In this document: piece after piece, positions 6,033 to 49,133 of the stretch
Numbering within the stretch: position 1 is the first letter of the stretch
Layout of the letters: each line of letters starts with the position of its first letter
IMG/VR virus record: IMGVR_UViG_3300026078_000033
Span: 1-58,712 of that record
Length of the DNA: 58,712 nucleotides
Source: a virus
Reading direction: 5' to 3' (one strand)
The notes under the pieces: generated by a model
What the model saw: only the letters and a program-made list of their open reading frames with translations
Told to the model about the DNA's origin: nothing
Database searches by the model: none
Translations under genes and position numbers: made by a program

Positions 6033-6445
6033 GCCGCGGTACCCCGTTCCTTGTCTGCGTGGCCCGGGTGGGTGTCGACGAGGAAAACCGGGGCGGTGCC
6101 GCCGAAGGTCCGGTCGCTCTCCGGGATGTTGCCCAGGTGCGCGATGTCCGGGGAGCGGCGCAGGATGCCGGTGTCGAGGTGCCAGTCGTGGTCGAAACGC
6201 CAGTCGATGTCCTGTCGCATGCTGCGGATCAGCAGGTCGATCGCTTCGATGGCGTCCCTGGTGAGACCGTGCCACTGGAAGTCGGCGTCGTAGGCGACAA
6301 CGTGGCGGTACGGCCGGTGGTGGCGGGTGTACAGCAGCTGCAGCCGGACCACGGCGATGTCCGGGTCGTCGGCGGCTGCGCGGATCGCCGCGGCGAGGGT
6401 GGCGGTGCGCGCGCTGCCGGCACGTAGGGTCTTGATCCGGTTCAC
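6029..6445 (-). CDS. Unknown protein (138 aa)
   Basis: Mixed alpha/beta composition with a conserved-looking HVVAYDADFQWHGLTRDAIE segment and a Trp/His/Asp-rich RFDHDWHLDTG. It sits between the ssDNA-annealing protein and the zinc paralogue with ATGA overlaps, so it may belong to the DNA-metabolism cluster. No family recognised. Confidence 0.65.
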   Translation of the reverse strand: MNRIKTLRAGSARTATLAAAIRAAADDPDIAVVRLQLLYTRHHRPYRHVVAYDADFQWHGLTRDAIEAIDLLIRSMRQDIDWRFDHDWHLDTGILRRSPDIAHLGNIPESDRTFGGTAPVFLVDTHPGHADKERGTAA

Positions 6446-7998
6446 GATCCACCGGCCAAACCGACCTGGCGGCCGCGCTTCTCCAGGCGTCCGGACAGGG
6501 CAGCGCCGTCGGCCTTGGTGATGGTGCCGCCGGTGAGGGCCTTGCCGATCTCGACCTTGATGGCGCCGGCGTCTTCCTCGGTGATGGCCTGCGAGATCTG
6601 CGCGCAGATGCCGTCGAAGACGCTCCGGTCGGGCTCGGATTCCGGCTCGGGCTCGGGCGCGGTGTCCTGCGCGGCGGCTGTCTGCGACGCGGGGGCAGCT
6701 GGCGGGTCGGCCGAGAAGTAGCCGCTGCCCAGACCACGAATCAGGATCTCGGCGTCCGCGGCGCTGAGCTTGTCCAGCGACTCGACGTCGCGGCCCAGGG
6801 CGCCGTTGATGATGCCCAGCCGGGTGGCGGCGTCGCCCTCGAGCACGCCGCGGCTGTTGAGCAGCGAGTTGATCGTGCGGACCTGGGCGTCGCTGATCCC
6901 GCCGGAAACCGGGGCCGCGGCCGCCGGGCGCGGCGACGGCTTCGGGCCGCCGCGTTTTGCCCGCGGCGCCGGTGCTGCCGGGCGTGCCGGCGGCTGCGGC
7001 GCGGGCGAGGACTGCGCGGGTTGTGCCGTCGGTGCCGGCACGGCGGCCGGCGGCTCGGGCACGACGGCGGCGGGCTGCTCGGCGGCCGGTGCCGGCGGAT
7101 ACAGGTCCGGGGTGCCGGACAGGATCCTGACGACCTGGCGGGCCTCATCCGGGCTGAGGTGCGCCGCATCGTCGACGTTGCGGCCCAGGATCTCGGACAG
7201 CTCGGACAGCCGGTCCGGGCCGTGGGCGCCGCGCTTGCGGGCCAGCAGCGAGTTGATCCGGGCGATCCAGTCGGGGCGCGCCCACTGCTCGGCGGGCGCG
7301 CCGTCGGCCGCGGACAGGTCGTGCCCGCAGCCGCTGCAGAACCTCGCGGCTTCGTCGTGGTCGGACCTGCCGCAGCTGGCGCAGTTCTTCGGCGCGGGCA
7401 GCTCGTGCCCGCAGCCGTCGCAGAACCGGGCCTTCGCATCAGTGGTGGTCTTCGCGCAGCCGGTGCAGGTCTTGGTCGCGGGGTGCAGGTCGGTCTGGGC
7501 CCACTGGTCCAGGGCCACACCGAAACGAATCCCGCCGTTCTTCAGCCCGTTGCTGATCAGTTCGGGCTTGCCGCCGATGCCGGGCTTGCCGTAGGCGGGC
7601 CGCTCGACTCCGCCGATGGAGACGTACATCCACATGCCGCCGTCGTCGTCGAGGGCGGGCAGGCCGCGCTCGTCGAACGCCATCGGACGCCAGTTCCAGG
7701 CCAGGTCAGCGTCCAGGAACCTGTCGGTGACTTCGGCGTGGCCGACGTAGTCGTCGTGGTCGTGGGCGTTGCTGACGGTGCTGCGGCAGGTGTTGCACCA
7801 GACGGCGGCGTGCCGGTCGCAGGTGGCGCCGGCCTTCTGTTCGCTGGCCCAGTTGCAGTCCCAGCAGTAGACCCGCGGCTTCTTGCCGATGCTGCGGGCC
7901 GGGATCGGCTCCCGCAGCGCCCGCAGCGCGCGGTGGTTGACGCGCCGCGGCTTCGGCTTCGGCACGGCGGCCGCGGGGGTGGTGTCGTTCTCTTCCAT
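6442..7998 (-). CDS. ssDNA-annealing protein, Rad52/ERF-like, with zinc ribbons and duplicated C-terminal domain
   Basis: 518 residues from ATG 7998. Residues 45-71 hold Cys/His pairs (CWDC, C, CNTC). Residues about 86-168 resemble the ERF/Rad52 annealing core: AEVTDRFLDADLAWNWRP, MYVSIGGVERPAYG, then ELISNGLKNGGIRFGVALD, corresponding to the family's VTDRL-W and SDALKRA-FG motifs. Two zinc ribbons follow (178-196 and 206-224; C-x2-C then C-D/S-G-C). A domain occurs twice, at about 246-296 and 374-424 (INSLL...LGR-V...LS-EA...IL-GL), separated by a Pro/Ala linker. Such proteins anneal single strands in phage recombination. No partner exonuclease is visible nearby. Confidence 0.6.
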   Translation of the reverse strand: MEENDTTPAAAVPKPKPRRVNHRALRALREPIPARSIGKKPRVYCWDCNWASEQKAGATCDRHAAVWCNTCRSTVSNAHDHDDYVGHAEVTDRFLDADLAWNWRPMAFDERGLPALDDDGGMWMYVSIGGVERPAYGKPGIGGKPELISNGLKNGGIRFGVALDQWAQTDLHPATKTCTGCAKTTTDAKARFCDGCGHELPAPKNCASCGRSDHDEAARFCSGCGHDLSAADGAPAEQWARPDWIARINSLLARKRGAHGPDRLSELSEILGRNVDDAAHLSPDEARQVVRILSGTPDLYPPAPAAEQPAAVVPEPPAAVPAPTAQPAQSSPAPQPPARPAAPAPRAKRGGPKPSPRPAAAAPVSGGISDAQVRTINSLLNSRGVLEGDAATRLGIINGALGRDVESLDKLSAADAEILIRGLGSGYFSADPPAAPASQTAAAQDTAPEPEPESEPDRSVFDGICAQISQAITEEDAGAIKVEIGKALTGGTITKADGAALSGRLEKRGRQVGLAGGS

Positions 7999-8000
7999 GG

Positions 8001-8423
8001 TTACGCTTCCGTCGTGAGCAGCTGGGTGGCGCGGGTGGTGCACGCGCGCAGACGGGCCTGGGCGACCTCGGGGTCGCAGGCGGCGTCGCGGTCGTAGACC
8101 CGCTGGGCGCGGGTGGTGGTGCCGTAGGACACGAGCAGCTGCTCGTGGCAGGCGGCGACGATGGCGTGGTCGCTGACGGCCCACGGGTCCAGGTCGGCGG
8201 CGAACAGCAGCAGCGCCACCGTGGGCACGTCCAGCTGCAGCCGCGGGCCGTTCACCTCGGGACCGTCGGCCCAGTGGAACCCGACGGGCAGCACCGGGAT
8301 CTGGGTCAGGCCCATCGCGGCCGCCATCGCCGGCGTGCGCTCGCGGCCGCGGTTCGGGTGGATCGGGTAGGCGTGGGTGCCGGCCAGCGGCACCGCGCAC
8401 GCGGGCATCGTCAGGGCGGTCAT
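8001..8423 (-). CDS. Unknown protein (140 aa)
   Basis: Starts at ATG 8423 (ATGA overlap with the upstream stop). Contains AYPIHPNRGRERTPAMAAAM and a helical C-terminal half. No transmembrane or Cys features. Lies directly upstream of the annealing-protein gene. Function unknown. Confidence 0.6.
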   Translation of the reverse strand: MTALTMPACAVPLAGTHAYPIHPNRGRERTPAMAAAMGLTQIPVLPVGFHWADGPEVNGPRLQLDVPTVALLLFAADLDPWAVSDHAIVAACHEQLLVSYGTTTRAQRVYDRDAACDPEVAQARLRACTTRATQLLTTEA

Positions 8424-8836
8424 CGCGCAGCCCCGCAGTCCTCGCATGAGCACGGGCTGACCAGGTACCAGAACCTGACCGACACGCCCTGGTAGTCGCC
8501 GCAGGCGGAGACCCGGTTCTGGCTCGGCGAGCCACCCAGCGGGTATTCGGCGTAGTCGAGGTCGAACTGCTCGGCCAGCTGCATCACTCGGCCGCGGATC
8601 TCGTGGTCGGAGAGCCCAAGGCCCCTGACGTGGACGTCGATGCTGCCGGAGCCGATGTTCCAGCCGCCGATTCGGATACCGATCGGTACACGCCCCATCA
8701 GCTCGCCGAGCACGCGGTATGCCAGCAGGTCCTGGTCACGCTGCTGCTGCTCGATGCTCTTGGGGCCCTGGCGTACCTCGGCGGTCGAGACGATGCCGTT
8801 CTGGACGAGGACGGCCGTGGCCTGTTCGGGGGTCAC
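8420..8836 (-). CDS. Unknown protein (138 aa)
   Basis: GTG start at 8836 overlaps the upstream stop (GTGA). The longer frame to 9322 runs over two other genes and is not supported. N-terminal helical region TPEQATAVLVQNGIVSTAEV, then a beta-rich portion with two Gly-rich turns and a Cys pair near the end (CSCEDC). Function unknown. Confidence 0.6.
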   Translation of the reverse strand: MTPEQATAVLVQNGIVSTAEVRQGPKSIEQQQRDQDLLAYRVLGELMGRVPIGIRIGGWNIGSGSIDVHVRGLGLSDHEIRGRVMQLAEQFDLDYAEYPLGGSPSQNRVSACGDYQGVSVRFWYLVSPCSCEDCGAAR

Positions 8837-13128: not shown

Positions 13129-14352
13129 TCAGGACACTACACGCAGCCGCGGACGGTCCAGGGCCGCCTCTATGGCCGCCAGGGCCTCAGTCTCCAGCTC
13201 CTTCACCAAGTGCCCGTATCGGTCCACGGTCGTGGTGATGGACTCGTGCCCCAGGCGCCGCTGAATCGCCGGCAGCGGCACGTTCGCGGCGATCAGCCAC
13301 GATGCGTGAGTGTGCCGCAGGTCCTGTAGCGAGGGGTGCTTGCGTAGGCCGCGCTTCTGCGCCTCCGGCACGGCAAGCCGCCAAAACCGGTGGTACCACT
13401 TCGAGTTCGGCCACGGTTGGTCGGCCTCGTCGACGAAGAGGAAGTCCTCCAGGTCGCGTCCCTTGGCCAGTCGGCGCACGACCTTCGCGCCGGTCTCGGA
13501 GACCGCGAGTGTCCGGCGGGCGCGCTTGCTCTTCGGCGCACCCAGGAACGGCTTGCGGTTCTCGTCTTCCTTCCAGGCCCGATGCACGGTGATGCGCAGC
13601 GGCTCGGCGCCGGGGCTCGGGTCGAGGATGTCCTTCACCTTCAGCGCGAACAGCTCCCCGCGGCGTAGCCCGGTCGAGACGGCCAGCACGGCGACGTCCT
13701 GGGCTTCCGGGGCGAGGCTGCCGAGAAGCAGCTGGAACTCGTCGTACTCCAGGAAGCACATGGTTTCGTCGATCTGGTGATCAGGGCGTGGCAGGTCCGT
13801 CTCCGCGCACGGGTTCGAGGAGCGCAGCGCCGGCCGGGCCTTCATGGCCCCCTTCATGATCTGGAACAGCAGCCCGTGAAGGTTCCAGATGTACTTCGGC
13901 GAGTACGGCTTGCGCAGCCACTCGTCGTCGTCGTTCGGGTCCCGTTCGCCGTCGGCGAGCGCGTTCACCCACAGCGCCACGGTCTCCTCGTTGAAGGCGT
14001 CTTCGTCGCGTACGTCGAGCTGGCCGAAGTACGGGCTCATATGCCGTGCCACAAGCTTGCGGTAGTCGTTGCGGGTCTTGGCGTCAATGCCGGACTTCTT
14101 CTTCAGGTATCGCTCGGCCCAGGCATCGAACAGGACCGGTTCGGGCTTCTCCGCCGGCTTCTCGACGGTGACGAAACCCACCTTCGGCACCCAGCCGGGC
14201 GGGTAGCGGTCGCCGTAGCCCTTGACCAGGCCGAGGAACTTCTCGCGAGTCTCGGGGTCGTCGAAGGTCTCCTGACACGGCTTACCGTCCTGGCGCCACA
14301 GCACCAGATAGGCCATGCCGTTCTTGCGGGGCAGATCTTTGGTGTAGGCCAT
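13129..14352 (-). CDS. int: Tyrosine site-specific integrase
   Basis: 407 residues from ATG 14352. The open frame to 14544 reads through the attP core and is not used here. An N-terminal arm-binding region (about 1-65) is followed by a core-binding SAM-like domain (about 70-180) and the catalytic domain. Visible catalytic residues are R230 (STGLRRGELFALK), a Lys in the PKSKRAR turn, R346 (DLRHTHASWL), H369 (LGHES) and nucleophile Y379 (TVDRYGHL). The first His of the H-x-x-R box is Gln343, a tolerated variation. It directs integration into, and with Xis excision from, a host tRNA gene. attP lies immediately upstream. Confidence 0.93.
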   Translation of the reverse strand: MAYTKDLPRKNGMAYLVLWRQDGKPCQETFDDPETREKFLGLVKGYGDRYPPGWVPKVGFVTVEKPAEKPEPVLFDAWAERYLKKKSGIDAKTRNDYRKLVARHMSPYFGQLDVRDEDAFNEETVALWVNALADGERDPNDDDEWLRKPYSPKYIWNLHGLLFQIMKGAMKARPALRSSNPCAETDLPRPDHQIDETMCFLEYDEFQLLLGSLAPEAQDVAVLAVSTGLRRGELFALKVKDILDPSPGAEPLRITVHRAWKEDENRKPFLGAPKSKRARRTLAVSETGAKVVRRLAKGRDLEDFLFVDEADQPWPNSKWYHRFWRLAVPEAQKRGLRKHPSLQDLRHTHASWLIAANVPLPAIQRRLGHESITTTVDRYGHLVKELETEALAAIEAALDRPRLRVVS

Positions 14353-14404
14353 GCCGCGACGGTAGAACCCCGGAGCTTGATCGTTCCGGGGTTCGACAAG
14401 TTTT

Positions 14405-14604
14405 CTGCAAGTAATTCTCGGGCTGTCGATCTTGTCTTGGGGCTCGCGCTGGTCAGTGCATGTGTGACTGTGCGGAGGATGTGGGATTCGAACCTCCGGC
14501 GTCACCCGTTTGACGTGCGGCGCCGCAGGTCGCCCATCCGACACGTGACGCTAAGAACCCGTGGATAACCGCTAAGGATCAGTTCGCTGCAAGTAAAACT
14601 TGCA
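14405..14604. other. attP: attP: tRNA 3'-end core flanked by integrase arm-type repeats
   Basis: The core at 14471-14494, read on the minus strand, is GGTTCGAATCCCACATCCTC followed by CGCA: a T-loop, T-stem half and acceptor 3' strand (ATCCTCC, discriminator G) like actinobacterial tRNA-Ser genes, which begin GGAGGAT. No 5' tRNA part is present. ctgcaagtaa occurs at 14405-14414 and again at 14587-14596, with an inverted acttgca at 14598-14604, flanking the core as P and P' arm sites would. Integration would rebuild the tRNA 3' end with int next to it. Confidence 0.75.
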
Positions 14605-20518: not shown

Positions 20519-22684
20519 ATGCCCGAGCACACGCTCAACGGCCACGCCAGGGCTGGCGAAATCCCCGTCCAGGCCAAGCCTCTGGCATTCGACCCGTACA
20601 CCGCGCCGCTGGACCCGAACACGCCGCCGGACGCCGTCCCGGCCGCCGCACCGCAGCCGGTGCCGGCGCCCGAGCCGGACGTCGTCGACGAGCGGCAGGA
20701 CCAGACGTCCGACGAGCAGGCCGAGCCGCGCCGGGGCTTCCACCGGATCCGCACCGTCGCAGGCCACCGGCACACCCGCACCGTTGTCCGGCACGCCGCC
20801 TACGTCGCGCAGGGCGCGGCCATCGCGGCACGTCAGCGGCGTGACACCCGCTCGACTGCGCGGCATGAGCGGATGATGCGGGTCGCCGAATCGCAGGGGG
20901 ACCACGCCACCGCGCTGTTGTGGGAGGAGCGGAAGCACCGGCACCTCGCGGACAGGCACGCCCGGCGTATGCAGCTGCTCCACGCACCGGTGCACGCCGC
21001 GAAGTCCGGCGCCTACGGCACCGCGACCGCGGCCGGGCTGCTGCTCGTCATCGGCATATGCCTCGCCGCCGCCGAACACGACCCGCACCAGGTCGCCGCG
21101 CCGTTCATCGACGCCGCCGACGTGGTGAAGTTCGTCATCGCCATGGTGTCGATCCTGTGGCCGCCGGCGGTCCTGGCCGGCATGTTCGCCGGCATCGCCG
21201 CCCTGTGGTCCACCGGCCGCAAGCGTGCCGACATGCCGGGCTGGCTGGTGACCTCCGCCGAGGGCGACGACCTCGTCATCGACGAGCGCACCATCACGCT
21301 GGCGATCAAGGCGCTGCGGATCCAGGGCGTCACGGAGTACATCAAGAAGGGCCTGCCGCTGCAGTACCTGGTGCCCGCCCGCGAAGACGGCCGCGGCACC
21401 TACGCCTCCCTGCGCCTGCCGTCCGGTGTCAGCGCCGAGAAGGTAGCCAAGCGGCGCACCGACCTGGCCACCGGCCTGCACCGGGCGGCGAAGGAGGTGT
21501 TCCCGACCGTCGGCGCCGAGGCCGGGATCCTGAACCTGTGGATCGCCGACAAGGGACGCCTGGAGGAAGGCGCCGGACCGTACCCGCTGCTCACCGAAGG
21601 CAAAGCAGACTTCTTCAAGGGCCTGCCGCTCGGGCGGACCCTGCGCGGGGACCTGATCAGCGCGCCGGTCAACGGCAGGAACACGATCGTCGGCGGCATG
21701 CCTGGTCAGGGCAAGTCCTCGGCAGCGCGGGCCCTGATGGCCGGCGCGGCGCTGGACCCGTCGTGCGAGCTGCGGATCTGGGTGCCGGACGCGAACTTCG
21801 ACTTCGAAGGCTTCAAGACCCGGTGCTCCCGATACGTCATGGGCGCCGAGGACGAACTGATCGAGCTGATCCTGGAGGACTGCGAACTGCTGCACGAGGA
21901 AATCCAGGCCCGGGGCCGGCTGCTGATCGAGTACGAGGAGCCGGAAGTGACGCGCAAGCTCGCCAACGCCGAGCCGCGTCTTCGGCCGCTGATGACGCTG
22001 CTGGAGGAGGCGCACATCGCGTTCAACCACGCCAAGCACGGCAAGGACATCTCGGCGCTGACCATCGAGAACGTGCGTCTCGGACGTAAGCGCGCGGTCC
22101 ATCAGATCGTGTCGACGCAGGCCCCGACGAAGGACAGCATCCCGCGGGACGTCACCCGCAACTGCTCCAACGGGCTCGCCTTCGCCGTCGGCGACCACGT
22201 CGCGAACGATGCGCTGCTCGGCCAGGGCGCCTACCGCGGCGGTCACCGCGCCACCGAGCTGCTGCCGGGCGTGGACCGGGGCGTGTGCCTGGCCAAGGGC
22301 ATCACCGGCGAGCGGTCGGACCTGATCCAGGTGCACTTCATCTCGATCACGCGCGACCGGGACGAGATCACGCCGCTGATCGGTCGCGCGCTCGACGCCG
22401 CGAACGCGTCGGTGTTGCAGGCGCCGGAGCGGCTGGAGAAGCGGGACCTGCTGGAGGACCTCGACGAGGTGCTCGGAACGGAGGCCACGCGGATCGCGGA
22501 CGTGCCGCACCTGCTGCGGCGGCTCGCGCCGACGTGGCCGGCCTACACGAAGCTGACCGGCACGGCGCTGGTGAAGCTGCTCGCCGGGCACGGGATCAAG
22601 GTTCCGTCGACCGGCAACACGTGGCCGCTTGACCCCGCCACCGTCCGCCGCGCGCTCGCCGAACGGTCCGAAAACGACAAGTGA
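20519..22684 (+). CDS. TraB/FtsK-type conjugative DNA translocase
   Basis: 721 residues. A disordered Pro-rich N-terminus is followed by two membrane spans (about 164-186 and 204-230) and the FtsK/HerA motor: Walker A GGMPGQGKS (392-400) and Walker B LMTLLEEAH (491-499). The C-terminal part (about 655-721) reads as a winged helix (PHLLRRLAPTWPAYTKLTGT). This is the size and layout of Streptomyces TraB/TraSA proteins, hexameric pumps that move double-stranded DNA between mycelial compartments after recognising short repeats. A host-type FtsK is less likely given the tra-like neighbours. Last gene of the rightward operon. Confidence 0.8.
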   Translation: MPEHTLNGHARAGEIPVQAKPLAFDPYTAPLDPNTPPDAVPAAAPQPVPAPEPDVVDERQDQTSDEQAEPRRGFHRIRTVAGHRHTRTVVRHAAYVAQGAAIAARQRRDTRSTARHERMMRVAESQGDHATALLWEERKHRHLADRHARRMQLLHAPVHAAKSGAYGTATAAGLLLVIGICLAAAEHDPHQVAAPFIDAADVVKFVIAMVSILWPPAVLAGMFAGIAALWSTGRKRADMPGWLVTSAEGDDLVIDERTITLAIKALRIQGVTEYIKKGLPLQYLVPAREDGRGTYASLRLPSGVSAEKVAKRRTDLATGLHRAAKEVFPTVGAEAGILNLWIADKGRLEEGAGPYPLLTEGKADFFKGLPLGRTLRGDLISAPVNGRNTIVGGMPGQGKSSAARALMAGAALDPSCELRIWVPDANFDFEGFKTRCSRYVMGAEDELIELILEDCELLHEEIQARGRLLIEYEEPEVTRKLANAEPRLRPLMTLLEEAHIAFNHAKHGKDISALTIENVRLGRKRAVHQIVSTQAPTKDSIPRDVTRNCSNGLAFAVGDHVANDALLGQGAYRGGHRATELLPGVDRGVCLAKGITGERSDLIQVHFISITRDRDEITPLIGRALDAANASVLQAPERLEKRDLLEDLDEVLGTEATRIADVPHLLRRLAPTWPAYTKLTGTALVKLLAGHGIKVPSTGNTWPLDPATVRRALAERSENDK

Positions 22685-40729: not shown

Positions 40730-42241
40730 TTACGGAGTCGGGGCGATGCTCTGGATCAGCCCCTGCGCGACCGGCGCGCGGTTGACGAACGTCTCGACCG
40801 CGCGGGACTCGCCGTCCTCGCGGGGGCCGCCGTGGGCCCGGTCCGAGCCGTAGACGTAGTTGTAGAGGTCGTCCAGGCACCGCATCTCGAACACCCGGTT
40901 GACGTTCGAGTTCGGGAAGTCGACCATGTCGCGGCGGGCCACCAGCGTGCCCGGGGGCATGTGCGGGTGCAGCTCGATCGGCACCTGCTTGCCGGTGAGC
41001 CGGTTGACGTAGGAGCCGACCCGGCCGCCGGCCACGACCTTGGAACGGCCCTCCGGGTCGTCCATGGTCAGGTAGGTGACCGCGCCCGGGGAGTTCAGGA
41101 TCAGCTTGCCGAGGCTGTTGGCCTCCTGCGCGCTGACCATGTACACCTGCGGCGACTCGTAGATGCTGTTGTAGTAGGCCGTGTTCAGCGAGTCGAGCTG
41201 GGTGATGCCGCCGCCGGACACGGTGAACTGGGAGCCGGCGGCGTCCTGGAGGATCGCGCCGGAGCTGGTGCCGGACCCGTGCTGAACGATCGCGCCACCG
41301 CCGGCGGCGGAGTTGTAGTCGCCGGTGATGGTGGCCAGCAGGCCGTTGAACTCCGCGCCCGCGCCGGTGCCGGCCGAGCCGTTGTCCGCGGCCAGGTTCA
41401 GCGTCGGAACGGTCGTGGACAGCCCTGGCAGCGTCAGCGACGGCGGGGTCTGGTTCGCTACGATCGTCGAGGTCATCGTGACCGACGGGATCGTGGTGGT
41501 GGTGTAGTACCACCAGGTGACGCCGTCGGGGGACTGGAACCAGTCGTAGGCCACGGCCCCGACAATCGACGCGATCGACGCGGACACCGAGTGGGTGCCG
41601 GCTCCGACGGTCGAGGTGGTCAGGTTCGCGGAGTTGCCCTGGGAGTTGCCGTGGCCGGCGCCGGTGCCGTCGCCGTTGCAGTAGTAGTAGCCGGACCCGG
41701 TGCGGGCGGCCACGGCCACGTAGGTGGCCTTGGAGTTGGCGATGGTGCCGCCGGTGGTGGAGTCGGCCAGCACCGGGGCGCCGGGGCGTGCGAGCGCGAA
41801 GTTCTGCGCCCCGATCGCCAGGATGTCCTCGCCGATTTTCCACTGGTTGATCGAGTTGTACACCGCCAGGGCCTTGGCGTCGGCGTAGCCCTTGGCGCGG
41901 GCGATCGCGTCGCGGGTCACGGTGTAGCCCATCGCCACCGGCTCGTACGGCGCGGAGACGTTGAGTTCCTGCAGCAGCGCCAGCGGGCCCGCGGCGTCGA
42001 ACGCGACACCGGGCTTGGGCTGCTGGTTGTTGATGTTGATGAGGACTTTCCACTGCGCGACGTCGGCGCCCATGTCCGGGCCCGTACGGGCCAGGGAGTC
42101 GCGGAACGTTGCCGGCACCGGGACCAGCGAGATCATGTCCGACAGGTCGATGCCGAAGATGCCGGTCGCGGTGGTGACGCCTGCGGTGGCGCCCTTGCTG
42201 AAGATCGCGAGGGTTTCCTCGGTGATCTCAAGAGTGTTCAT
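40730..42241 (-). CDS. Major capsid protein (HK97-like) with inserted domain
   Basis: 503 residues. The N-arm and E-loop region (about 1-165; VAQWKVLINI, EPVAMGYTVTRDAIARAKGY) and the C-terminal P/A domains (about 345-503; LNTAYYNSIYESPQVYMVSA; VPIELHPHMPPGTLVARRDM; FEMRCLDDLYNYVYGSDRAH) are standard for actinophage major capsids. Residues about 165-290 are a Thr/Ser/Gly-rich beta insertion (YDWFQSPDGVTWWYYTTTTI) that would project as an Ig-like surface domain. Flanked by hairpins that isolate it as a highly expressed unit. Confidence 0.85.
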   Translation of the reverse strand: MNTLEITEETLAIFSKGATAGVTTATGIFGIDLSDMISLVPVPATFRDSLARTGPDMGADVAQWKVLININNQQPKPGVAFDAAGPLALLQELNVSAPYEPVAMGYTVTRDAIARAKGYADAKALAVYNSINQWKIGEDILAIGAQNFALARPGAPVLADSTTGGTIANSKATYVAVAARTGSGYYYCNGDGTGAGHGNSQGNSANLTTSTVGAGTHSVSASIASIVGAVAYDWFQSPDGVTWWYYTTTTIPSVTMTSTIVANQTPPSLTLPGLSTTVPTLNLAADNGSAGTGAGAEFNGLLATITGDYNSAAGGGAIVQHGSGTSSGAILQDAAGSQFTVSGGGITQLDSLNTAYYNSIYESPQVYMVSAQEANSLGKLILNSPGAVTYLTMDDPEGRSKVVAGGRVGSYVNRLTGKQVPIELHPHMPPGTLVARRDMVDFPNSNVNRVFEMRCLDDLYNYVYGSDRAHGGPREDGESRAVETFVNRAPVAQGLIQSIAPTP

Positions 42242-42316: not shown

Positions 42317-43555
42317 TTAGCTGCCGGGGGTGAACCGGGCCTTCAGCGCCGCGAGCGTGACGTTCTTCATCGCCTGCTCGCGAACCGGGCCTTCGGGGAA
42401 CTGGTCCTCGACGGCCTTCAGGACGGCCTGGAACTCCGGCGTGTTGGTCGGGCCGTCGCCGCGCATCGCGAGCGAGGGCTGGCCGATCGCCCCGTTCAGC
42501 AGCGGGGACCTGCGGTCGTCGGGCTGGGCCGCCATCTTGCTCACGCGCTCTTCCGTGCCGTTCACCTTCGCGGCCAGCTCACCGAGCTGCTTCACCACGG
42601 GTGCCATGACCTGGTCGAGTGCGGAGGCGAGGCTGCCCGCCGCCTTGGTGACGTCGTCGGTGCCCTGCGCGGGCGACTGGACGGTGTCGGTGCCCGGGAT
42701 GGTCCGGGTCTCGTCCGGCGCCTGCGCGGCGCCGGAAGCCTTCGCGGCCGCGGCGGCCTTCGCCGCCTTCTTCGCCGCCTTCTTGATCAGGGCCTGGCGG
42801 CCGTACTCGGCCAGCTGCTCCTGCGTCAGGCCGACGCCGGTGGGCTCGGTGGCCTTGGCCACCGGCTCGGTCGCGGTCGCCGTCGCGGTTGTGGTCGCGG
42901 CCGGGGCGGTCGTCTCGGTGCTCATGGTGTTCTCCTCCGAGGGGGATGCCGCCTGTGCGGCGTGGGCGGGCGCTTCCTGCGCCTTGGTGACCGGGCCGCC
43001 GGTCTCGGTCGTCTCAGTCGGGTCGGTGTCGGCGGCCTTGGAGACCTCGACACCGAGCCGCTTCGCCGCCGCCCGGATCTTCGGCATGGCGGCGCCGGCG
43101 ATGCGTTTGCTGTCGGCGTCATCGCCGTTCATCGCCGCGGCCGCGCGCCCCAGGGCGTTGCGGGCGTGCGCGGCGTCGTGGACGGGGTAGTGCCGGTTGG
43201 ACCGTGGCGTGGTCTTGCCGGCGTTGTCCTTGCTGCCGCCCGGCTCGATGTGCGCGAACGCGCTGTCGGGGAGGTCGTTGACGTCCGCGGTGGACATGTC
43301 GGCCTTGCGGACAGACGCGGCGTGGATCAGGGCCATGGCCTGTGCCGGGGTCAGCCGCTCCTCCGGCGCCTGGTCCTGCTCGGCGCCCTTGGCGATCAGG
43401 TCCCGGACGTAGTCCGACCCGAACACGCCGTCGGCGCCGGCTTCGGCGGCCTTCGCGAACAGAATCGTGGTGCCGTTCGCGGCCTTGCCGACGGTGTGCA
43501 CCGTGTCGATGTCCGCGCCGGTCAGCTCGCTGAACTCTTCGTCGTCGTCGGCCAT
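42317..43555 (-). CDS. Capsid scaffold/maturation protein with a nested internal start
   Basis: 412 residues. The N-terminal half has LTPAQAMALIHAASVRKADM, LPDSAFAHIEPGGSKD and TTPRSNRHYPVHDAAHARNA, a His-rich domain seen in phage head operons. The C-terminal half is a typical scaffold: Ala/Lys-rich coiled region and VKQLGELAAKVNGTEERVSK. An in-frame ATG at 42925 has a very strong GGAGGAG at 6 nt and would give a 202-residue scaffold alone, like lambda C/Nu3. Lies between the XkdF-like protease and the capsid. Confidence 0.7.
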   Translation of the reverse strand: MADDDEEFSELTGADIDTVHTVGKAANGTTILFAKAAEAGADGVFGSDYVRDLIAKGAEQDQAPEERLTPAQAMALIHAASVRKADMSTADVNDLPDSAFAHIEPGGSKDNAGKTTPRSNRHYPVHDAAHARNALGRAAAAMNGDDADSKRIAGAAMPKIRAAAKRLGVEVSKAADTDPTETTETGGPVTKAQEAPAHAAQAASPSEENTMSTETTAPAATTTATATATEPVAKATEPTGVGLTQEQLAEYGRQALIKKAAKKAAKAAAAAKASGAAQAPDETRTIPGTDTVQSPAQGTDDVTKAAGSLASALDQVMAPVVKQLGELAAKVNGTEERVSKMAAQPDDRRSPLLNGAIGQPSLAMRGDGPTNTPEFQAVLKAVEDQFPEGPVREQAMKNVTLAALKARFTPGS

Positions 43556-43950
43556 CAGGCCGCCCTCCTGGTGGTGATTCGGCGGGCTCTGCCCTGCGGG
43601 GACAACCCGGTGATCTCGCCGGCCTTGTACAGCTCCCAGCCGGCGGGGCTGAGGTAGCCGCCGACAAGCCAGTCACCGGCTTTCACGACCGTGACCGACC
43701 CGTCGGGGCCGGTGACTGGCCAGTCCGGGCCGCGGTGGATCCACGACTCGGTCGGCTCGAAGTCCTGGCCGGTGCCGTCGAGGTGGAACTGGCCGCCGCC
43801 CATGCCGTTGCGGGCGAAGGAGTGCGCGGCCTTCTCCAGCTCCTCAGCGGTGAAGTAGTCGCGCTTGCCGTCCTGGCCCTTGACGATCCCGTCGTCCGGC
43901 CCGGCCCTGTAGGCGATCGCCACGATGAACCGCATCGGTTCGTCAGCCAT
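43555..43950 (-). CDS. XkdF-like prohead protease
   Basis: 131 residues. RDYFTAEELEKAAHSFARNG, GGGQFHLDG, ESWIHRGPDWPV, KAGDWLVGGYLSPAGWELYK and GEITGLSPQGRARR follow the XkdF family order (helix 'ae-ie-aah-f', His, W-I, gsWvv, kkGei-G-S-GG). The His of FHLDG and the Ser of GLSPQG are candidate catalytic residues. It overlaps the portal-MuF stop by 8 bp and is followed by the scaffold. Confidence 0.65.
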   Translation of the reverse strand: MADEPMRFIVAIAYRAGPDDGIVKGQDGKRDYFTAEELEKAAHSFARNGMGGGQFHLDGTGQDFEPTESWIHRGPDWPVTGPDGSVTVVKAGDWLVGGYLSPAGWELYKAGEITGLSPQGRARRITTRRAA

Positions 43951-46900
43951 CCGAACCTCCGATCACGAATCCAGGGCCGGGCGCGCAACGGCATCGGGGG
44001 TGGCCTGGCGGCCCGTCGTCGCCGCTGGGGAACGCGTCGTCGAGTGGGATCACGCCGGCGTCGGCGTTGTCCTCGCAGATGGCACAGGCGCCGCTGCTAG
44101 CGATCAGCCACTCCTTGCCGGGCAGGCCGTTGCGCCGGTAGGTGTCCAGCGACGCCTGGGACACGGCGCGGGCGAGTTCGGTGACGGCGACCATCTGGGC
44201 TCGGCTGCCGTTGTCGAGGATGTCCCGCAGGTCCCGCGCCAGGGTGTCGACGCTGTCGCCGTTCTCCAGCGACAGCGCGATCGCCTGGGCCAGGTCGTCG
44301 AAGCGGCCGGCACCGAGGGACTTGATCTGCTGGATTCCCTGCGCGGCGAGCATCTGCTGCAGGCCGGCACCGAGGCCGTCGAACCCGAGGACCAGGTTCG
44401 CCGCGTCCGGGTCACCCGGTGTCCAAGCGCCCCAGTCTGGTGCGGCGCCGTTCACCATGGCCTGCGCGGACCGGTCGCCGAGGACGTAGGCCTCGGTGTA
44501 GGCGTTCGTCAGCACGGCACGGAACGCATCGACCAGCTGCTGGCGGACGCCCTGGTGTTCCAGCCACGCGCGCGCCGTAGCGAGGCCTTCGTCGACATTG
44601 TCGTTGGCTGCCTCGTCGTCGCCGGCGGCCTTGCGGACCGGGTTGAGCGCGAGCCACCGGGCCGCGTAGTCCGCGGTGTCGATACGGGCTGTCAGCGCCG
44701 TACGGAGCCGCTCGGCGTAGATCCGGGCCAGCTCCTGATCCCGTGCCCAGCCAGGCCACTGCTGGACGTTGTCAGGCCCCTGCGGGGCCCGGCCTTTTGG
44801 GTCGTCGGCGGCCTTCGCCATGCCGTCGTGGCAGGTGCAGGCGCCGACGTCGCCGGTATCGGCTCCCGAGCCCTCGCAGCATTCGCAGGGGCCATCGGCG
44901 TGCGCGCCGGCACCAGAGCAGCACGGGCATACCGGCAGGCCGCCGGCTGTCCCTTGACCGCCCTGCGGACCGAGCGGAATCCGTGTCACCTGGTCGCCGC
45001 GGTGTACGGCAAGGTGGGTGAACGTCACCGGCGTCGGCGTGACCGGCTCCGGCGTCTGCTCGCCGTCGTCCAGGTACTTCAGCGTCACGTGCGGGTGGTA
45101 GACCCGGTGCTCGGACGCAGATAGGTCGGCGAGCATGCCGTTCAGGTCGTGCGCTGCGGGCAGCTCGACCCTCGCGAACGCCGGCGTCTTGCCGTCGCTG
45201 CCTGCCGACGGCGTGAACGTGTCGACGCCGTGCACGGTCCCGGACACCGGCCCGGGTATCGCCGCGGCGGCCGCGCCGGCACGCGCGACCGCCTGGGCGA
45301 ACGCGTCGTCGTCGACGTCCGGGCCGAGGTACACGATCGTGATGTGGTGGTCGGCAAGGCCGCCGGGCGTGACCGGGATGGTTCCGGGCTCCAGGTCCAG
45401 CGAGATCATGCCGGAGCGCTTCGTTAGGCCCGGCACGGCGCCGGCCTTGTTCACTTGCTGGGAGGAGTGCATCTCGTCCCAGGGGCCGACTGCCTTGTCT
45501 GGGTGGGCGATGTAGGCCCGCAGCGGCACCCCGGCGCGCTGGGCGCCTTCGGCCCTGTGGTGGCCGTCGGCGACCATCAGCGCGCTCTCACCCGGCCGTT
45601 CGATCAGTACCGCCGGCTTCACCGGCTTCCCGGCGCGGATCTTCCGGACGGTCTTGTCGACACGGCCGGGCTCGGAGCTGGCGGCCCAGGTGTCCTGGTC
45701 GGAGAAGTCGATGTTCTCCAGCGGCACCGACACCGGGCCGGTCCAGCGCAGACCCTTGACCCAGCCGATGGCCTCGGCCGGGAAGTTGTCGGCCAGCTGC
45801 TCGTACACGGCCTGCGCGGTCGCATCGGCCTTGGCCTTGACGACCTGGGCGACTTCGGCCCGACCGCCGCGGTTCAGCTCGGCGGCCACGGCCTGCGGGA
45901 CGGTGGTGAAGGCGAAGTCCCTGTCCCACGCGCCGCGGCGGCTCGCACCCTTGACGAACACCCGAAACGCGGCCAGCTCGCCCTCCTGGGCGCGGTCGCG
46001 ATCACCCTGGTACTGCCAGCCGCGCCGATGCGTCACGACCGTGTCGCCCTTGACGACCTGCCACGAAACGCCCTTGCTGACGTCCTTCTCGTCGTCCTCT
46101 TGGTCGTCCTGCTGCGCCGGGGACGGGGCGGCAGCTGGTGCCGCCGGGGCGGCCGGCGCCGCGGTGGCGTCCGGCGTCGGCTGGCTCTCGCGGTTCGGGT
46201 TCTCCGACGCGTCGAGCTGCTGCCGTGCGGCCACCTGCGCGGCGTCGGTCGCGGCGAGCGAGGCCTTGTCGTCGGTGGTGCCCGGGTGCGGGATCACACC
46301 GATCGCCGGAACGAACGGCTGATCCAGCGCCTTCTGGCTCCTGTCGGGGCCAAACGTTTCCGGATCGGTCTTGCCCGCGACGCTCTCGATCGACAGCAGC
46401 GGGATCGGGCCCAGCCGCGCGGTGGAGTAGAACCGCGGGGTCGGGCGTTCCTTGTCGATCGGCTTGCCGAGCACGTCCACACGCACCTCGTCCGAAGACA
46501 GGGCACCCATGTCCACGTACAGCTTGTTCGCCTGCGCCTCCTGGAGCCGGTCCTCGACCTCGCGGCCTGTGTCCAGCCGCACCTTCACCGGCAGCCCGAT
46601 GTCGTGCTGCAGGTACCGGGTCAGGATGCCCTCGACGTACCGCACCCACGGCAGCGTATTGACGCGGAACTGAATGTCCGTCTGCGTCTCGCCGGTAGCG
46701 CGGTTGACGTCGCCGGTCAGGGACAGGTCCTGGGACACCACGCCGAACGCGGCGCAGGTCCGGATCATCAGGTACTCGGGGAAAGCCTTGTCGAACGTCG
46801 CCGGCTTGGTCGCGATGTAGTCGGAGTCGGCAGGGACGGCGATCAGCTGGCGCATCTTGGCCTGGTCGCCCATCACCATGGCGTCCCAGTAGTCCTGCCA

Positions 46901-47779
46901 CTCGGCAACCTGGTCCGGGGAGGACACGTCCGGCGGGACCTTGATGAACCCGGCCGGCACCGAGCCCTCGGTGAACATCTGCAGGAAGTGCCACTGGAAC
47001 CGGATGTCGGTGTTCGCGGTCAGCAGGATCGACTCGATCGGGGCCAGCCCGAACGGGGAGTCCTCCTGGGGCCGGAACGGCACGTAGATGATGTCGTCGG
47101 TGGTGAGCCAGTCGGCGACCATGCCGTGGACGGTCTGCCAGTACGCCGGCGCGGGTGCTTTCGGGCGGCGGCCGTTCTCGTCGATGTACGGGTTGATCGT
47201 CTTACCGTCGACGACCTCCAGGGCGATGATGTTGCCGTCGTAGTCACGGCGGCGGTACAGCGGCGCACTGTCGTATTTGAGGGCGTTCTCCAGCCACTTG
47301 GAGACCCACGACTCGTACGGCAGCTCCCGGTCCGGGTAGGCCAGGACCAGCTTCGCGACGTCGATGGCTTCGTCGACGTCGTCCTTGACGCCGTCGGCGG
47401 GCTGGAACATCAGCTCCATCGACCGGATTTCGTCGATCTTGTGGTTGATGCACATCCGCGCGACGTCGTAGGCGTCGATGAGGGCCTTGAGGACGTCGTA
47501 GGAGACCTTCCCCCACGACGCGCGGGAGCGGGTGCTGATGTTGACGCCGACCGGGTAGTCCATGGCGCGGGTGCGCTGGGAGTACCCGAAGTACGGGTTC
47601 ATCGGCGCGCCGGGCCCGAACGATCCCGTGGTGTTCATGCCGTGCTGGTTCAGCGACTGCCGGATCGGCGCCGGCGTGGCAGGCGCGACGGTGGTCGGCC
47701 GGCGCACGGCCACCGTGGAGCCGCCGCTAGGGGCGCTCGAGCCGTTGCGGAGCTGCCGAGGCAGAGATGACCGTGGCAC
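43943..47779 (-). CDS. Portal-ParB-like-2H phosphodiesterase-zinc-MuF fusion protein
   Basis: 1278 residues from GTG 47779 (GTG 47713 possible). Residues about 60-480 are a siphovirus portal (YDVARMCINHKIDEIRSMEL; DDIIYVPFRPQEDSPFGLAP; FGVVSQDLSLTGDVNRATGE). After a Pro/Ala linker, about 600-765 ends in a ParB-like core (AVLIERPGESALMVADGHHR, then AEGAQRAGVPL). Residues about 805-905 have both motifs of the 2H phosphoesterase superfamily: DHHITIVYLG (H812-x-T814) and YHPHVTLKYL (H897-x-T899). Residues 951-983 hold eight Cys in DnaJ-like CPCC/CECC/CTC clusters. Residues about 1075-1268 are a MuF minor-head domain ending CAICEDNAD...PPGHPRCRC. Portal and MuF are usually separate genes. The inserted enzymes would be packaged in the virion; anti-defence or effector action is inferred. 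Confidence 0.82.
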   Translation of the reverse strand: MPRSSLPRQLRNGSSAPSGGSTVAVRRPTTVAPATPAPIRQSLNQHGMNTTGSFGPGAPMNPYFGYSQRTRAMDYPVGVNISTRSRASWGKVSYDVLKALIDAYDVARMCINHKIDEIRSMELMFQPADGVKDDVDEAIDVAKLVLAYPDRELPYESWVSKWLENALKYDSAPLYRRRDYDGNIIALEVVDGKTINPYIDENGRRPKAPAPAYWQTVHGMVADWLTTDDIIYVPFRPQEDSPFGLAPIESILLTANTDIRFQWHFLQMFTEGSVPAGFIKVPPDVSSPDQVAEWQDYWDAMVMGDQAKMRQLIAVPADSDYIATKPATFDKAFPEYLMIRTCAAFGVVSQDLSLTGDVNRATGETQTDIQFRVNTLPWVRYVEGILTRYLQHDIGLPVKVRLDTGREVEDRLQEAQANKLYVDMGALSSDEVRVDVLGKPIDKERPTPRFYSTARLGPIPLLSIESVAGKTDPETFGPDRSQKALDQPFVPAIGVIPHPGTTDDKASLAATDAAQVAARQQLDASENPNRESQPTPDATAAPAAPAAPAAAPSPAQQDDQEDDEKDVSKGVSWQVVKGDTVVTHRRGWQYQGDRDRAQEGELAAFRVFVKGASRRGAWDRDFAFTTVPQAVAAELNRGGRAEVAQVVKAKADATAQAVYEQLADNFPAEAIGWVKGLRWTGPVSVPLENIDFSDQDTWAASSEPGRVDKTVRKIRAGKPVKPAVLIERPGESALMVADGHHRAEGAQRAGVPLRAYIAHPDKAVGPWDEMHSSQQVNKAGAVPGLTKRSGMISLDLEPGTIPVTPGGLADHHITIVYLGPDVDDDAFAQAVARAGAAAAAIPGPVSGTVHGVDTFTPSAGSDGKTPAFARVELPAAHDLNGMLADLSASEHRVYHPHVTLKYLDDGEQTPEPVTPTPVTFTHLAVHRGDQVTRIPLGPQGGQGTAGGLPVCPCCSGAGAHADGPCECCEGSGADTGDVGACTCHDGMAKAADDPKGRAPQGPDNVQQWPGWARDQELARIYAERLRTALTARIDTADYAARWLALNPVRKAAGDDEAANDNVDEGLATARAWLEHQGVRQQLVDAFRAVLTNAYTEAYVLGDRSAQAMVNGAAPDWGAWTPGDPDAANLVLGFDGLGAGLQQMLAAQGIQQIKSLGAGRFDDLAQAIALSLENGDSVDTLARDLRDILDNGSRAQMVAVTELARAVSQASLDTYRRNGLPGKEWLIASSGACAICEDNADAGVIPLDDAFPSGDDGPPGHPRCRCAPGPGFVIGGSDG

Positions 47780-49133
47780 GCCGCCCCCCTGTCTTGGGTA
47801 TCTGGTCGCGCCAGGAACGGGCGGTGGACGGGACTTCGATGCCTTCGGCCTCGGCGCGGGCCTTCAGCGCCTCGAGGAACGCGGCGCCCTGGCCGAGCTG
47901 CGCAAGCTCGGTCAGGACCCAGACGAGGGCGTCCATGCGGTCGGGGCTGGTGCCGTCGATCGGGGTCCAGGTGGTCATCTGGTCTTCGAGCGTCGGCATC
48001 GGGCCGACGTGGTGAACCCGGTGCTGCTCGTACAGCGCGGCCACCGGTTCGGCGCGCTGGACCTTGCCGCGGGACGCGGTGATGACGTCGACGGGGACTT
48101 TCTTGTCGACGTTGCGGATGGTCGACTTGACCATCGCCCCGCCGTAGTTGATCTCTGCGACGATGCGGTCTGCGGAGAACTCGTGGTAGGCGCCGACGGC
48201 GCGGGAGGCCCAGCCGTTCGGCGAGAGCTTGCACGAGCGGTCGGCCAGCACGTACAGGTCGCCGTCGACGCCGAGGCCGGCGACGATGATGCCCTGCTCG
48301 TCGTTGTCCTCACCCTCGCCGCCGGACGGGTCGATGCCGATGCAGATCCGCACCAGGTCCGGGACGTTCTCGAGGGCGACGCGGTCGCCGTCGATACCGG
48401 CGATGGTCCACAGCGCGCCTTCGACGTCCTCCAGCAGCTCCCCGAGGAGCTCCTGGCGGCCGATGCGCGTGCCCTCATAGGTGGCCAGGACGTGCCGGCG
48501 GAACGACGGGGCGAGGTTGGCGAGGTTGTCGTACGTCGACCCGGAGGTGCGCACGGTGGTGTCCTGGCCCAGCAGCGTCCGCATCAGTGCGTTCGGCTTC
48601 GGGGTGGTGGTCACCACGGCCTGCGGCAGCTCCCCGAGGCGCAGCCCCAGCATGAGGTTGTTCCAGGACGTGTCCAGGACGTCGCCCTTGCGGGCGTCTT
48701 TCCATGCCGCGGCCTCATCGGCCCAGGCGAAGTGGTGTTGCGGGCCACGCAACGCCGCCGGCACCTCGGCCGAGTAGGCGTAGGCGGTGGTTCCGTTGGC
48801 CCAGGTGAGCCGCCGCTTCGATGACTGGTATTCGGGGGCTCCGGCGCCGGCGACGGCCAGCAGCCCGGACTCGCCTTCGACCATGACGTCGCGGACGTCG
48901 GCGGGGGTGCGTCCGACCAGTGCGATTCGGCAGCCGGGGTTGTCGGTGGCTTTCTCGTGGACCCATTCGGCGGCCGAGCGGGTCTTGCCGGCGCCGCGGC
49001 CGGCGATGAACGCCCACACGAGCCAGTCGCCGAGTGGGGCGAGTTGTTCGGGGCGGGCGATCGTCCGCCATGGCGGCCGGTAGGTGTCGAAGGCGCGGGC
49101 GGCGTGCTCGGCCCAGTCGATTGTGGCCGCCAT
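47727..49133 (-). CDS. Terminase large subunit
   Basis: 468 residues. ATPase: Walker A AFIAGRGAGKTRSAAEW (about 41-57) and Walker B HHFAWADEAAAW. The nuclease domain begins at IGIDPSGGEGEDNDEQGIIV, giving the first catalytic Asp, with MDALVWVLTEL near the end carrying another. Drives DNA packaging into the prohead through the portal encoded next, with which it overlaps by 53 bp. Separated from the small subunit by a 105-bp gap holding an AT-rich palindrome. Confidence 0.92.
   Translation of the reverse strand: MAATIDWAEHAARAFDTYRPPWRTIARPEQLAPLGDWLVWAFIAGRGAGKTRSAAEWVHEKATDNPGCRIALVGRTPADVRDVMVEGESGLLAVAGAGAPEYQSSKRRLTWANGTTAYAYSAEVPAALRGPQHHFAWADEAAAWKDARKGDVLDTSWNNLMLGLRLGELPQAVVTTTPKPNALMRTLLGQDTTVRTSGSTYDNLANLAPSFRRHVLATYEGTRIGRQELLGELLEDVEGALWTIAGIDGDRVALENVPDLVRICIGIDPSGGEGEDNDEQGIIVAGLGVDGDLYVLADRSCKLSPNGWASRAVGAYHEFSADRIVAEINYGGAMVKSTIRNVDKKVPVDVITASRGKVQRAEPVAALYEQHRVHHVGPMPTLEDQMTTWTPIDGTSPDRMDALVWVLTELAQLGQGAAFLEALKARAEAEGIEVPSTARSWRDQIPKTGGRRATVISASAAPQRLERP

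What the first reader, a model, noticed from the sequence alone, without database searches (positions are those of the whole stretch)
43943..47779. Portal-MuF fusion carrying a ParB-like segment, a 2H phosphodiesterase and a zinc cluster
One 1278-codon frame joins a portal, a ParB-like motif (ADGHHR at 737-742), a 2H phosphoesterase with both H-x-T motifs (H812-x-T814, H897-x-T899), eight clustered Cys and a MuF minor-head domain. MuF proteins of temperate phages are known carriers of toxin domains, and the 2H superfamily includes phage Acb1, which degrades CBASS cyclic nucleotides. Inference: each virion would carry about a dozen copies of a nucleotide-processing effector that could act on entry, for example as anti-CBASS or RNA end processing. 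I know of no described portal-2H-MuF fusion.
Basis: partly seen in the sequence, partly recalled or inferred. Interest (0 to 1): 0.9.

Follow-up and report, generated by a model that had tools for sequence, protein, structure and literature searches.

The report
Phage portal polyprotein carrying enzyme cargo
This phage makes its DNA-entry portal as one long protein strung with small nucleotide-handling enzymes, and sequence marks between the pieces suggest that the virus's own capsid protease cuts them apart, so that the enzymes could travel into the next host inside the particle.

Summary
In detail: one intact 1278-codon frame, on the minus strand, with portal, ParB/sulfiredoxin-like, 2H phosphoesterase (both HxT motifs), eight clustered Cys and MuF. 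The 2H fold is well predicted (pLDDT 92.8). It resembles LigT/2',3'-cyclic phosphodiesterases more than Acb1. Fusion of 2H or Nudix to portal/MuF was already reported (Iyer 2017 and 2022), so the fusion and the injected-effector idea are not new. What appears new is how the protein is built. In about 50 related virus sequences the same portal/MuF backbone carries 2H, Nudix and ParB-like modules in shuffled orders, or none. The linkers between modules are strongly enriched for [VILMF]-x-K-[AGS] (140 seen, 28 expected; no other residue tested at the Lys position is enriched). The same motif is enriched in the neighbouring scaffold and S78_2/XkdF protease, and sits at an invariant place near the capsid protein N-terminus. 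It is not enriched in tail, terminase or other genes tested. HK97, which has an S78-type protease, is cut at K103|S104. I infer a polyprotein cut inside the procapsid, releasing the 2H enzyme as possible ejectable cargo. Cleavage, packaging and substrate are untested. Anti-CBASS activity is one option, not the favoured one.

The parts
43943..47779 (-). Whole fusion ORF, 1278 aa (P0001): portal - W module - ParB-like - 2H - Cys cluster - MuF
   Evidence: GC3 periodicity
46340..47530 (-). Portal domain, residues 84-480
   Evidence: Pfam PF04860 E 5e-21; family HMM
45851..45979 (-). Short conserved 'W module', residues 601-643, present in most relatives; in Sonali/Mufasa8 it lies after the Nudix module instead
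45458..45808 (-). ParB/sulfiredoxin-superfamily domain with DGHHR motif, residues 658-774
   Evidence: AlphaFold2 pLDDT 93.6; nearest folds sulfiredoxin, Noc, PadC, ParB; profile match to free serine kinase SerK with DGHHR aligned
44960..45433 (-). 2H phosphoesterase domain, residues 783-940; catalytic motifs H812-x-T814 and H897-x-T899
   Evidence: PF13563 30.4 bits vs cut-off 27; pLDDT 92.8; LigT/CPDase fold
44831..44929 (-). Eight-Cys linker cluster, residues 951-983, possible zinc site; absent from most relatives
43970..44542 (-). MuF minor head domain, residues 1080-1270
   Evidence: PF04233 E 1e-9; family HMM
46070..46081 (-). Candidate protease site VSK569|G, portal/W-module linker
   Evidence: motif scan
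46046..46057 (-). Candidate protease site VVK577|G, portal/W-module linker
45833..45844 (-). Candidate protease site VVK648|A between W module and ParB-like domain
45443..45454 (-). Candidate protease site VNK778|A between ParB-like domain and 2H
44810..44821 (-). Candidate protease site MAK989|A between 2H/Cys cluster and MuF region
44627..44638 (-). Candidate protease site VRK1050|A before the MuF domain
43555..43950 (-). Head maturation protease, Peptidase_S78_2/XkdF (131 aa); its ATG overlaps the stop of the fusion
   Evidence: PF14550 51.9 bits vs cut-off 24; overlap with GGAGG upstream
42317..43555 (-). Scaffold-like protein (412 aa) with 10 hxK[AGS] sites (1.5 expected)
40730..42241 (-). 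Major-capsid-like protein (503 aa), identified by gene order and by similarity to the annotated capsid proteins of Sonali/Mufasa8; candidate cleavage site K16|G near its N-terminus
47727..49133 (-). Terminase large subunit, directly upstream
   Evidence: PF03237/PF17289

Best explanation
The gene encodes a portal polyprotein. A portal domain, a short conserved module, a ParB/Srx-like domain, a 2H phosphoesterase and a MuF head domain are joined by flexible linkers, each holding at least one site for the neighbouring S78_2 (XkdF-type) maturation protease, which cuts after Lys in [VILMF]-x-K|[AGS]. During assembly the C-terminal extensions would lie inside the procapsid; the protease that trims the capsid protein and digests the scaffold also separates the modules. 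The 2H enzyme is thus freed as a protein of about 17 kDa that can be packaged and leave with the DNA. In the new host it would hydrolyse 2',3'-cyclic-phosphate or 2'-5'-linked nucleotides (RNA ends, ADP-ribose 1'',2''-cyclic phosphate or defence signals). Shown here: the architecture, the fold, the module shuffling, and the motif enrichment with its link to capsid protein, scaffold and protease. Inferred: cleavage, retention in the virion, ejection, enzyme activity and substrate.
For: Motif: in 125 linkers of the related polyproteins hxK[AGS] occurs 140 times vs 28.2 in composition-keeping shuffles (z 20.5), and 100 linkers have at least one vs 24 expected; R, E, D, T, Q or N at the same position is not enriched. 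With 18 mutually divergent representatives: 51 sites vs 12.8, 33 of 43 linkers vs 10.3. Window alone: 6 vs 0.57, 0 of 2000 shuffles, all four linkers hit (P 0.001); in the window only the fusion, scaffold and protease are clearly enriched, not TerL, tape measure or other genes tested. The capsid protein has K|A or K|G at the same place near its N-terminus in all 18 relatives found. A peptide like the start of the mature capsid protein (TAGVTxxTGIxGVD, or TAGITxxTGIYSYD) recurs in the portal linker of 16 polyproteins, and the GVD/SYD type agrees with that of the same phage's capsid protein in most pairs that can be compared. S78_2 protease is next door and in at least 20 related loci. HK97 is cut at K103/S104 (PMC10275583). 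Cassettes swap at these borders: ParB+2H, ParB+Nudix, ParB alone, 2H alone, Nudix+2H, none. An upstream K[AGS] lies 8-15 residues before most 2H domains. Arthrobacter phage Edmundo carries 2H fused to the S78_2 protease itself with LTK|A between.
Against: No cleavage data exist for these phages in anything I read. S78_2/XkdF specificity has not been measured to my knowledge; the Lys rule is borrowed from HK97. Linkers of related sequences are not independent, so the z-score is inflated (the 18-representative test reduces this). Two motif matches lie inside the portal fold (K98, K331) and one inside the W module (K610), so a match is not always a site. Strict matches are few in ParB-2H linkers (2 of 10) and Wmod-2H linkers (4 of 10). 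Freed modules could leak from the procapsid, as HK97 fragments do (own knowledge), rather than be ejected.
Confidence: 0.62

Rival explanations
1. Uncut fusion: the enzymes stay tethered to the 12 portal subunits and act from there, or act during assembly; the Lys motifs are ordinary linker residues or scaffold-binding sites.
For: No cleavage data. Linkers are flexible and Ala-rich, where Lys-Ala pairs arise easily. The capsid-N-arm-like peptide in the portal linker could be a docking site rather than a cut site.
Against: Shuffles keep linker composition and still give 5-fold fewer motifs; Lys alone among seven residues tested at that position shows enrichment. The motif clusters in head-precursor proteins and sits at an invariant capsid N-terminal place.
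Confidence: 0.2
2. Acb1-like anti-CBASS effector: the ejected 2H cleaves cyclic oligonucleotide signals of the host.
For: Same superfamily; 15 of 23 family members weakly match Pfam Acb1 (best 1.2e-4); poxvirus cGAMP nuclease and Acb1 appear among fold matches. Iyer 2022 proposed targeting of nucleotide-signal systems.
Against: Nearest folds are LigT/CPDase (E 1e-5 to 1e-4); Acb1 ranks 46th (E 0.02, TM 0.49). The window's own 2H matches LigT_PEase and 2_5_RNA_ligase2 but not Acb1 at the limit used. Host and its defences unknown.
Confidence: 0.25
3. RNA-end or ADP-ribose by-product processing: 2H opens 2',3'-cyclic phosphates on cut tRNA, or ADP-ribose 1'',2''-cyclic phosphate, with Nudix as alternative or partner.
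For: LigT/CPDase-type fold including A. thaliana cyclic nucleotide phosphodiesterase; 2H and Nudix occupy the same slot and co-occur in L040, L043, L047, L049, L051. Iyer 2022 discusses both in ADP-ribose pathways.
Against: No RNA ligase or kinase was found among the window genes scanned with PHROGs; Iyer 2017 notes that these 2H types are not found next to RNA ligases. 2H substrate cannot be read from the fold.
Confidence: 0.35
4. MuF polymorphic toxin with a 2H RNase warhead.
For: The phage has an integrase and MuF proteins of temperate phages carry toxins. Iyer 2017 suggested an RNase role for such 2H domains.
Against: 2H is upstream of MuF, not C-terminal; the next gene, overlapping the stop, is the protease, so there is no adjacent small immunity ORF.
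Confidence: 0.07

Closest known systems
Phage polyvalent proteins and 2H/Nudix-MuF/portal fusions (Iyer et al. 2017, PMC5512222; 2022, PMC9503650)
   Same: 2H or Nudix domains fused to MuF or portal domains; proposed packaging and injection; idea of countering nucleotide signals or cutting RNA.
   Different: The passages read mention autoproteolysis of P1 DdrB by its own peptidase domain, but no maturation-protease sites at module borders. Shuffled slots, empty versions and the capsid-N-arm-like peptide are described here from new sequences.
Arthrobacter phages Sonali and Mufasa8 gp3 (portal-Nudix-MuF)
   Same: Same backbone, same gene order (terminase, fusion, S78_2-type protease, capsid); annotated 'portal and MuF-like fusion' or 'MutT/NUDIX'.
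   Different: Nudix instead of ParB+2H; W module placed after the Nudix.
Portal-MuF fusions of Microbacterium phages (PMC7302621)
   Same: Portal and MuF in one gene (clusters EA3, EA5, EA8, EB).
   Different: No 2H cargo reported in the passages read; the EA phages are said to lack a maturation protease gene.
HK97 capsid protein/protease system
   Same: S78-type protease, cut after Lys before a small residue (K103|S104).
   Different: HK97 cuts a scaffold domain from the capsid protein; no cargo polyprotein.
Phage P1 Dar proteins and SPN3US ejection proteins
   Same: Internal head proteins; [quoted passage not shown]
   Different: There they are separate gene products, and SPN3US cuts after A-x-E and removes N-terminal propeptides.
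2H phosphoesterases LigT, CPDase/ThpR, Acb1
   Same: Fold and both HxT motifs.
   Different: Part of a portal polyprotein; about 15-18% identity to solved LigT/CPDase structures; substrate unknown.

Membership tests
2H phosphoesterase superfamily | Two H-x-[T/S] motifs | tested here: met
   H812-x-T814 and H897-x-T899; both His invariant in 23 sequences
2H phosphoesterase superfamily | Bilobal 2H fold | tested here: met
   Model pLDDT 92.8; top PDB matches drCPDase and E. coli LigT, prob 1.00
2H phosphoesterase superfamily | Phosphodiesterase activity | not testable with these tools
   needs enzyme assay
Acb1 anti-CBASS nucleases | Best similarity to Acb1 rather than to LigT/CPDase | tested here: not met
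   Acb1 ranks 46th by fold (E 0.02), LigT/CPDase E 1e-5 to 1e-4; no Acb1 Pfam match for the window domain at E 0.1
Acb1 anti-CBASS nucleases | Cleaves CBASS cyclic oligonucleotides | not testable with these tools
   needs enzyme assay
MuF head proteins | MuF domain next to portal and terminase genes | tested here: met
   PF04233 E 1e-9; terminase upstream; portal fused
MuF polymorphic toxins | Toxin domain C-terminal to MuF, usually with a small downstream immunity ORF | tested here: not met
   2H is N-terminal to MuF; next gene is the protease and overlaps the stop; definition from PMC5576092
ParB/sulfiredoxin superfamily | ParB/Srx fold | tested here: met
   pLDDT 93.6; Srx, Noc, PadC, ParB best folds, TM about 0.5
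ParB partition protein | Full ParB: CTPase domain followed by DNA-binding HTH | tested here: inconclusive
   Only the N-terminal type of fold is seen in the 126-aa domain, with a DGHHR motif as in SerK/SbnI; an HTH, parS and ParA were not searched for specifically
Polyprotein processed by the head maturation protease | Adjacent maturation protease | tested here: met
   PF14550 S78_2 above cut-off
Polyprotein processed by the head maturation protease | Shared candidate cut motif at module borders, scaffold and capsid N-terminus | tested here: met
Polyprotein processed by the head maturation protease | Observed cleavage products in virions | not testable with these tools
   needs mass spectrometry

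The most novel reading that the evidence does not exclude
A widespread phage lineage uses its portal gene as a cargo polyprotein: interchangeable enzyme modules (2H, Nudix, ParB/SerK-like) sit between sites for the capsid maturation protease, so that assembly itself frees a matched set of enzymes, up to 12 copies each, inside every virion for delivery with the DNA.
Probability: 0.5. Interest if true: 0.75.

Novelty: new variant of a known kind. Interest (0 to 1): 0.62.

Why it matters
If true, it gives a general and easily tested rule for how phage-head effectors fused to portal or MuF proteins become free, deliverable enzymes: the capsid protease cuts them out. It would let one predict cargo boundaries from sequence, explain how such enzymes can be swapped without harming the portal, and suggest a way to load chosen proteins into phage heads. 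Related isolates (Arthrobacter phages Sonali and Mufasa8) make it directly testable.

Tried and rejected
Frame-error explanation: rejected. Acb1 membership: nearest folds are LigT/CPDase. MuF toxin with immunity gene: no adjacent small ORF, wrong order. Zinc cluster as part of the 2H: it is a linker element shared by few relatives. Genome scan for the 2H alignment in genome contigs: 50 pattern matches, none a relative, so no host was assigned. tblastn of the window 2H against isolate phages: no match at 0.01; the 2H of L049 gave only weak matches (E 0.04 and above) to proteins annotated RNA ligase or capsid protease. Sequence search of the capsid protein and protease against solved structures: nothing useful. 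EMBO Rep 2025 phage phosphoesterase: a metallophosphoesterase, unrelated. An earlier paper on such protease-site polyproteins in phage heads: none seen in the library searches, which do not cover most subscription journals.

Full report
OBSERVATION. The frame 43943-47779 is a single 1278-codon gene on the minus strand. Pfam gives portal (106-433), 2'-5' RNA ligase/2H (812-909) and MuF (1163-1266); PHROGs adds a ParB-like match (702-749) and strong portal and head-morphogenesis matches. As an isolated segment the 2H part passes the Pfam cut-off (30.4 vs 27 bits), and 22 of 23 relatives match. GC3 of 0.84-0.95 along the whole frame and continuous fusions in many relatives exclude a frame error. 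Neighbours: terminase upstream; S78_2/XkdF protease, scaffold-like protein and capsid protein downstream. The phage carries an integrase.

FOLDS. AlphaFold2 on 23 aligned relatives gives the 2H domain at pLDDT 92.8, pTM 0.88. The best solved matches are D. radiodurans CPDase and E. coli LigT; viral 2'-5' phosphodiesterases and Usb1 follow; Acb1 is far down (rank 46, E 0.02). The ParB-like domain (pLDDT 93.6) has the ParB/sulfiredoxin fold, and its DGHHR motif aligns with that of the free serine kinase SerK, so 'ParB-like' is right for the fold but a partition role is not implied.

RELATIVES. 28 viral contigs match the whole protein and 29 the 2H alignment. Mapping modules with HMMs built here shows one backbone with changing cargo: ParB+2H (window), ParB+Nudix (L003, L004, L007, L023), ParB only (L005), 2H only (L008, L024, L034-L039, L041, L046), Nudix only (L009, L011, L012, L018, L019, Sonali, Mufasa8), Nudix+2H (L040), no cargo (L026). 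In a second, more distant group the order is portal-MuF followed by ParB, 2H and Nudix in several orders (L044, L049, L052, L054, L056). In L013 and L015 the MuF part is a separate ORF. Pfam confirms Nudix in representative cases. So 2H is an exchangeable, dispensable cassette: it is not needed for portal function.

THE LINKER MOTIF. At module borders a short pattern recurs: hydrophobic, any residue, Lys, then Ala/Gly/Ser. In 125 linkers there are 140 matches against 28.2 in shuffles that keep each linker's composition; replacing Lys by R, E, D, T, Q or N gives no excess; 100 of 125 linkers have a match against 24 expected. Reducing to 18 divergent representatives leaves 51 vs 12.8. In the window alone all four linkers hold a match, 6 vs 0.57 expected, never reached in 2000 shuffles; across the window genes tested, clear excess appears only in this fusion, the scaffold-like protein (10 vs 1.5) and the protease (4 vs 0.3). 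The 8-15 residues before most 2H domains contain K[AGS]. The capsid protein has K followed by A or G at one fixed place near the N-terminus in all 18 relatives found, within ETLxxIKK|A-T-TAGVxxxTGIxGVDLSDLISLIPV. A copy of the peptide after that Lys lies in the portal linker of 16 polyproteins, and in phages with a 'SYD' capsid version the portal copy is also of the SYD type (the window's own linker lacks it). HK97, whose protease is the S78 prototype (own knowledge), is cut at K103/S104 (PMC10275583). In Arthrobacter phage Edmundo a 2H domain is joined to the S78_2 protease itself by LTK|A.

MECHANISM. These facts fit a polyprotein cut by the head protease inside the procapsid. Shown: architecture, fold, shuffling, motif statistics, shared motif in capsid protein, scaffold and protease. 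Inferred from knowledge of tailed phages: the portal C-terminus faces the capsid interior; 12 copies. Inferred only: cleavage, retention, ejection, substrate. The fold and the exchange with Nudix favour small nucleotide or RNA-end substrates with 2',3'-cyclic or 2'-5' bonds; whether the aim is RNA repair, ADP-ribose by-products or a defence signal cannot be told from sequence. The uncut-fusion rival competes with the polyprotein claim; the Acb1, RNA-end and toxin rivals concern the enzyme's role and are compatible with it, so their confidences are not meant to sum with the main one.

KNOWN WORK. Iyer et al. 2017 state that 2H domains are fused to MuF or portal domains and suggest RNase or anti-signal roles; Iyer et al. 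2022 repeat this for 2H and for Nudix, also fused to the capsid-processing peptidase. The figures could not be viewed, so exact architectures there were not compared. Portal-MuF fusions are described in Microbacterium phages. Protease-trimmed ejection proteins are known in SPN3US, cut after A-x-E. I found no account of maturation-protease sites between portal/MuF modules; the library does not cover most subscription journals.

LIMITS. Motif tests use related sequences; some matches fall inside folded domains (K98, K331) or inside the W module (K610). The motif was first noticed by eye in these same sequences and then tested, so the exact P-values should be read with that in mind; the unaffected checks are the other-residue controls, the non-head genes and the capsid N-terminus. 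The protease family's specificity is unmeasured. The host is unknown (one search found no bacterial genome match).

Noticed in passing
L021 (ORF residues 676-1022), L043 (portal pieces 121-284 and 657-902), L044 (LAGLIDADG match at 670-720): Portal genes of several relatives carry large insertions; the one in L021 looks like an intein (starts with Cys, ends near CGN|T) and L044 has a LAGLIDADG match.
   Followed up: partly
L057 ORF, residues 1454-1601: An ADP-ribosyltransferase domain (PF03496) in the same ORF as ParB-like and 2H modules.
   Followed up: no
L024:2255-4636: Protease and scaffold are fused in one ORF with a VPLAK|GS site between them.
   Followed up: partly
L060 (Arthrobacter phage Edmundo gp18) and L061 (Microbacterium phage ValentiniPuff gp7): Genes annotated capsid maturation protease are 2H + S78_2 protease fusions; homologues are variously annotated RNA ligase or aldolase.
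   Followed up: partly
window 20519-22684 (+) and 13129-14544 (-): FtsK/SpoIIIE-like protein and an integrase by PHROGs match, so the phage is probably temperate.
   Followed up: no
window 6442-8535 (-): Single-strand annealing protein domain inside a 697-aa ORF.
   Followed up: no
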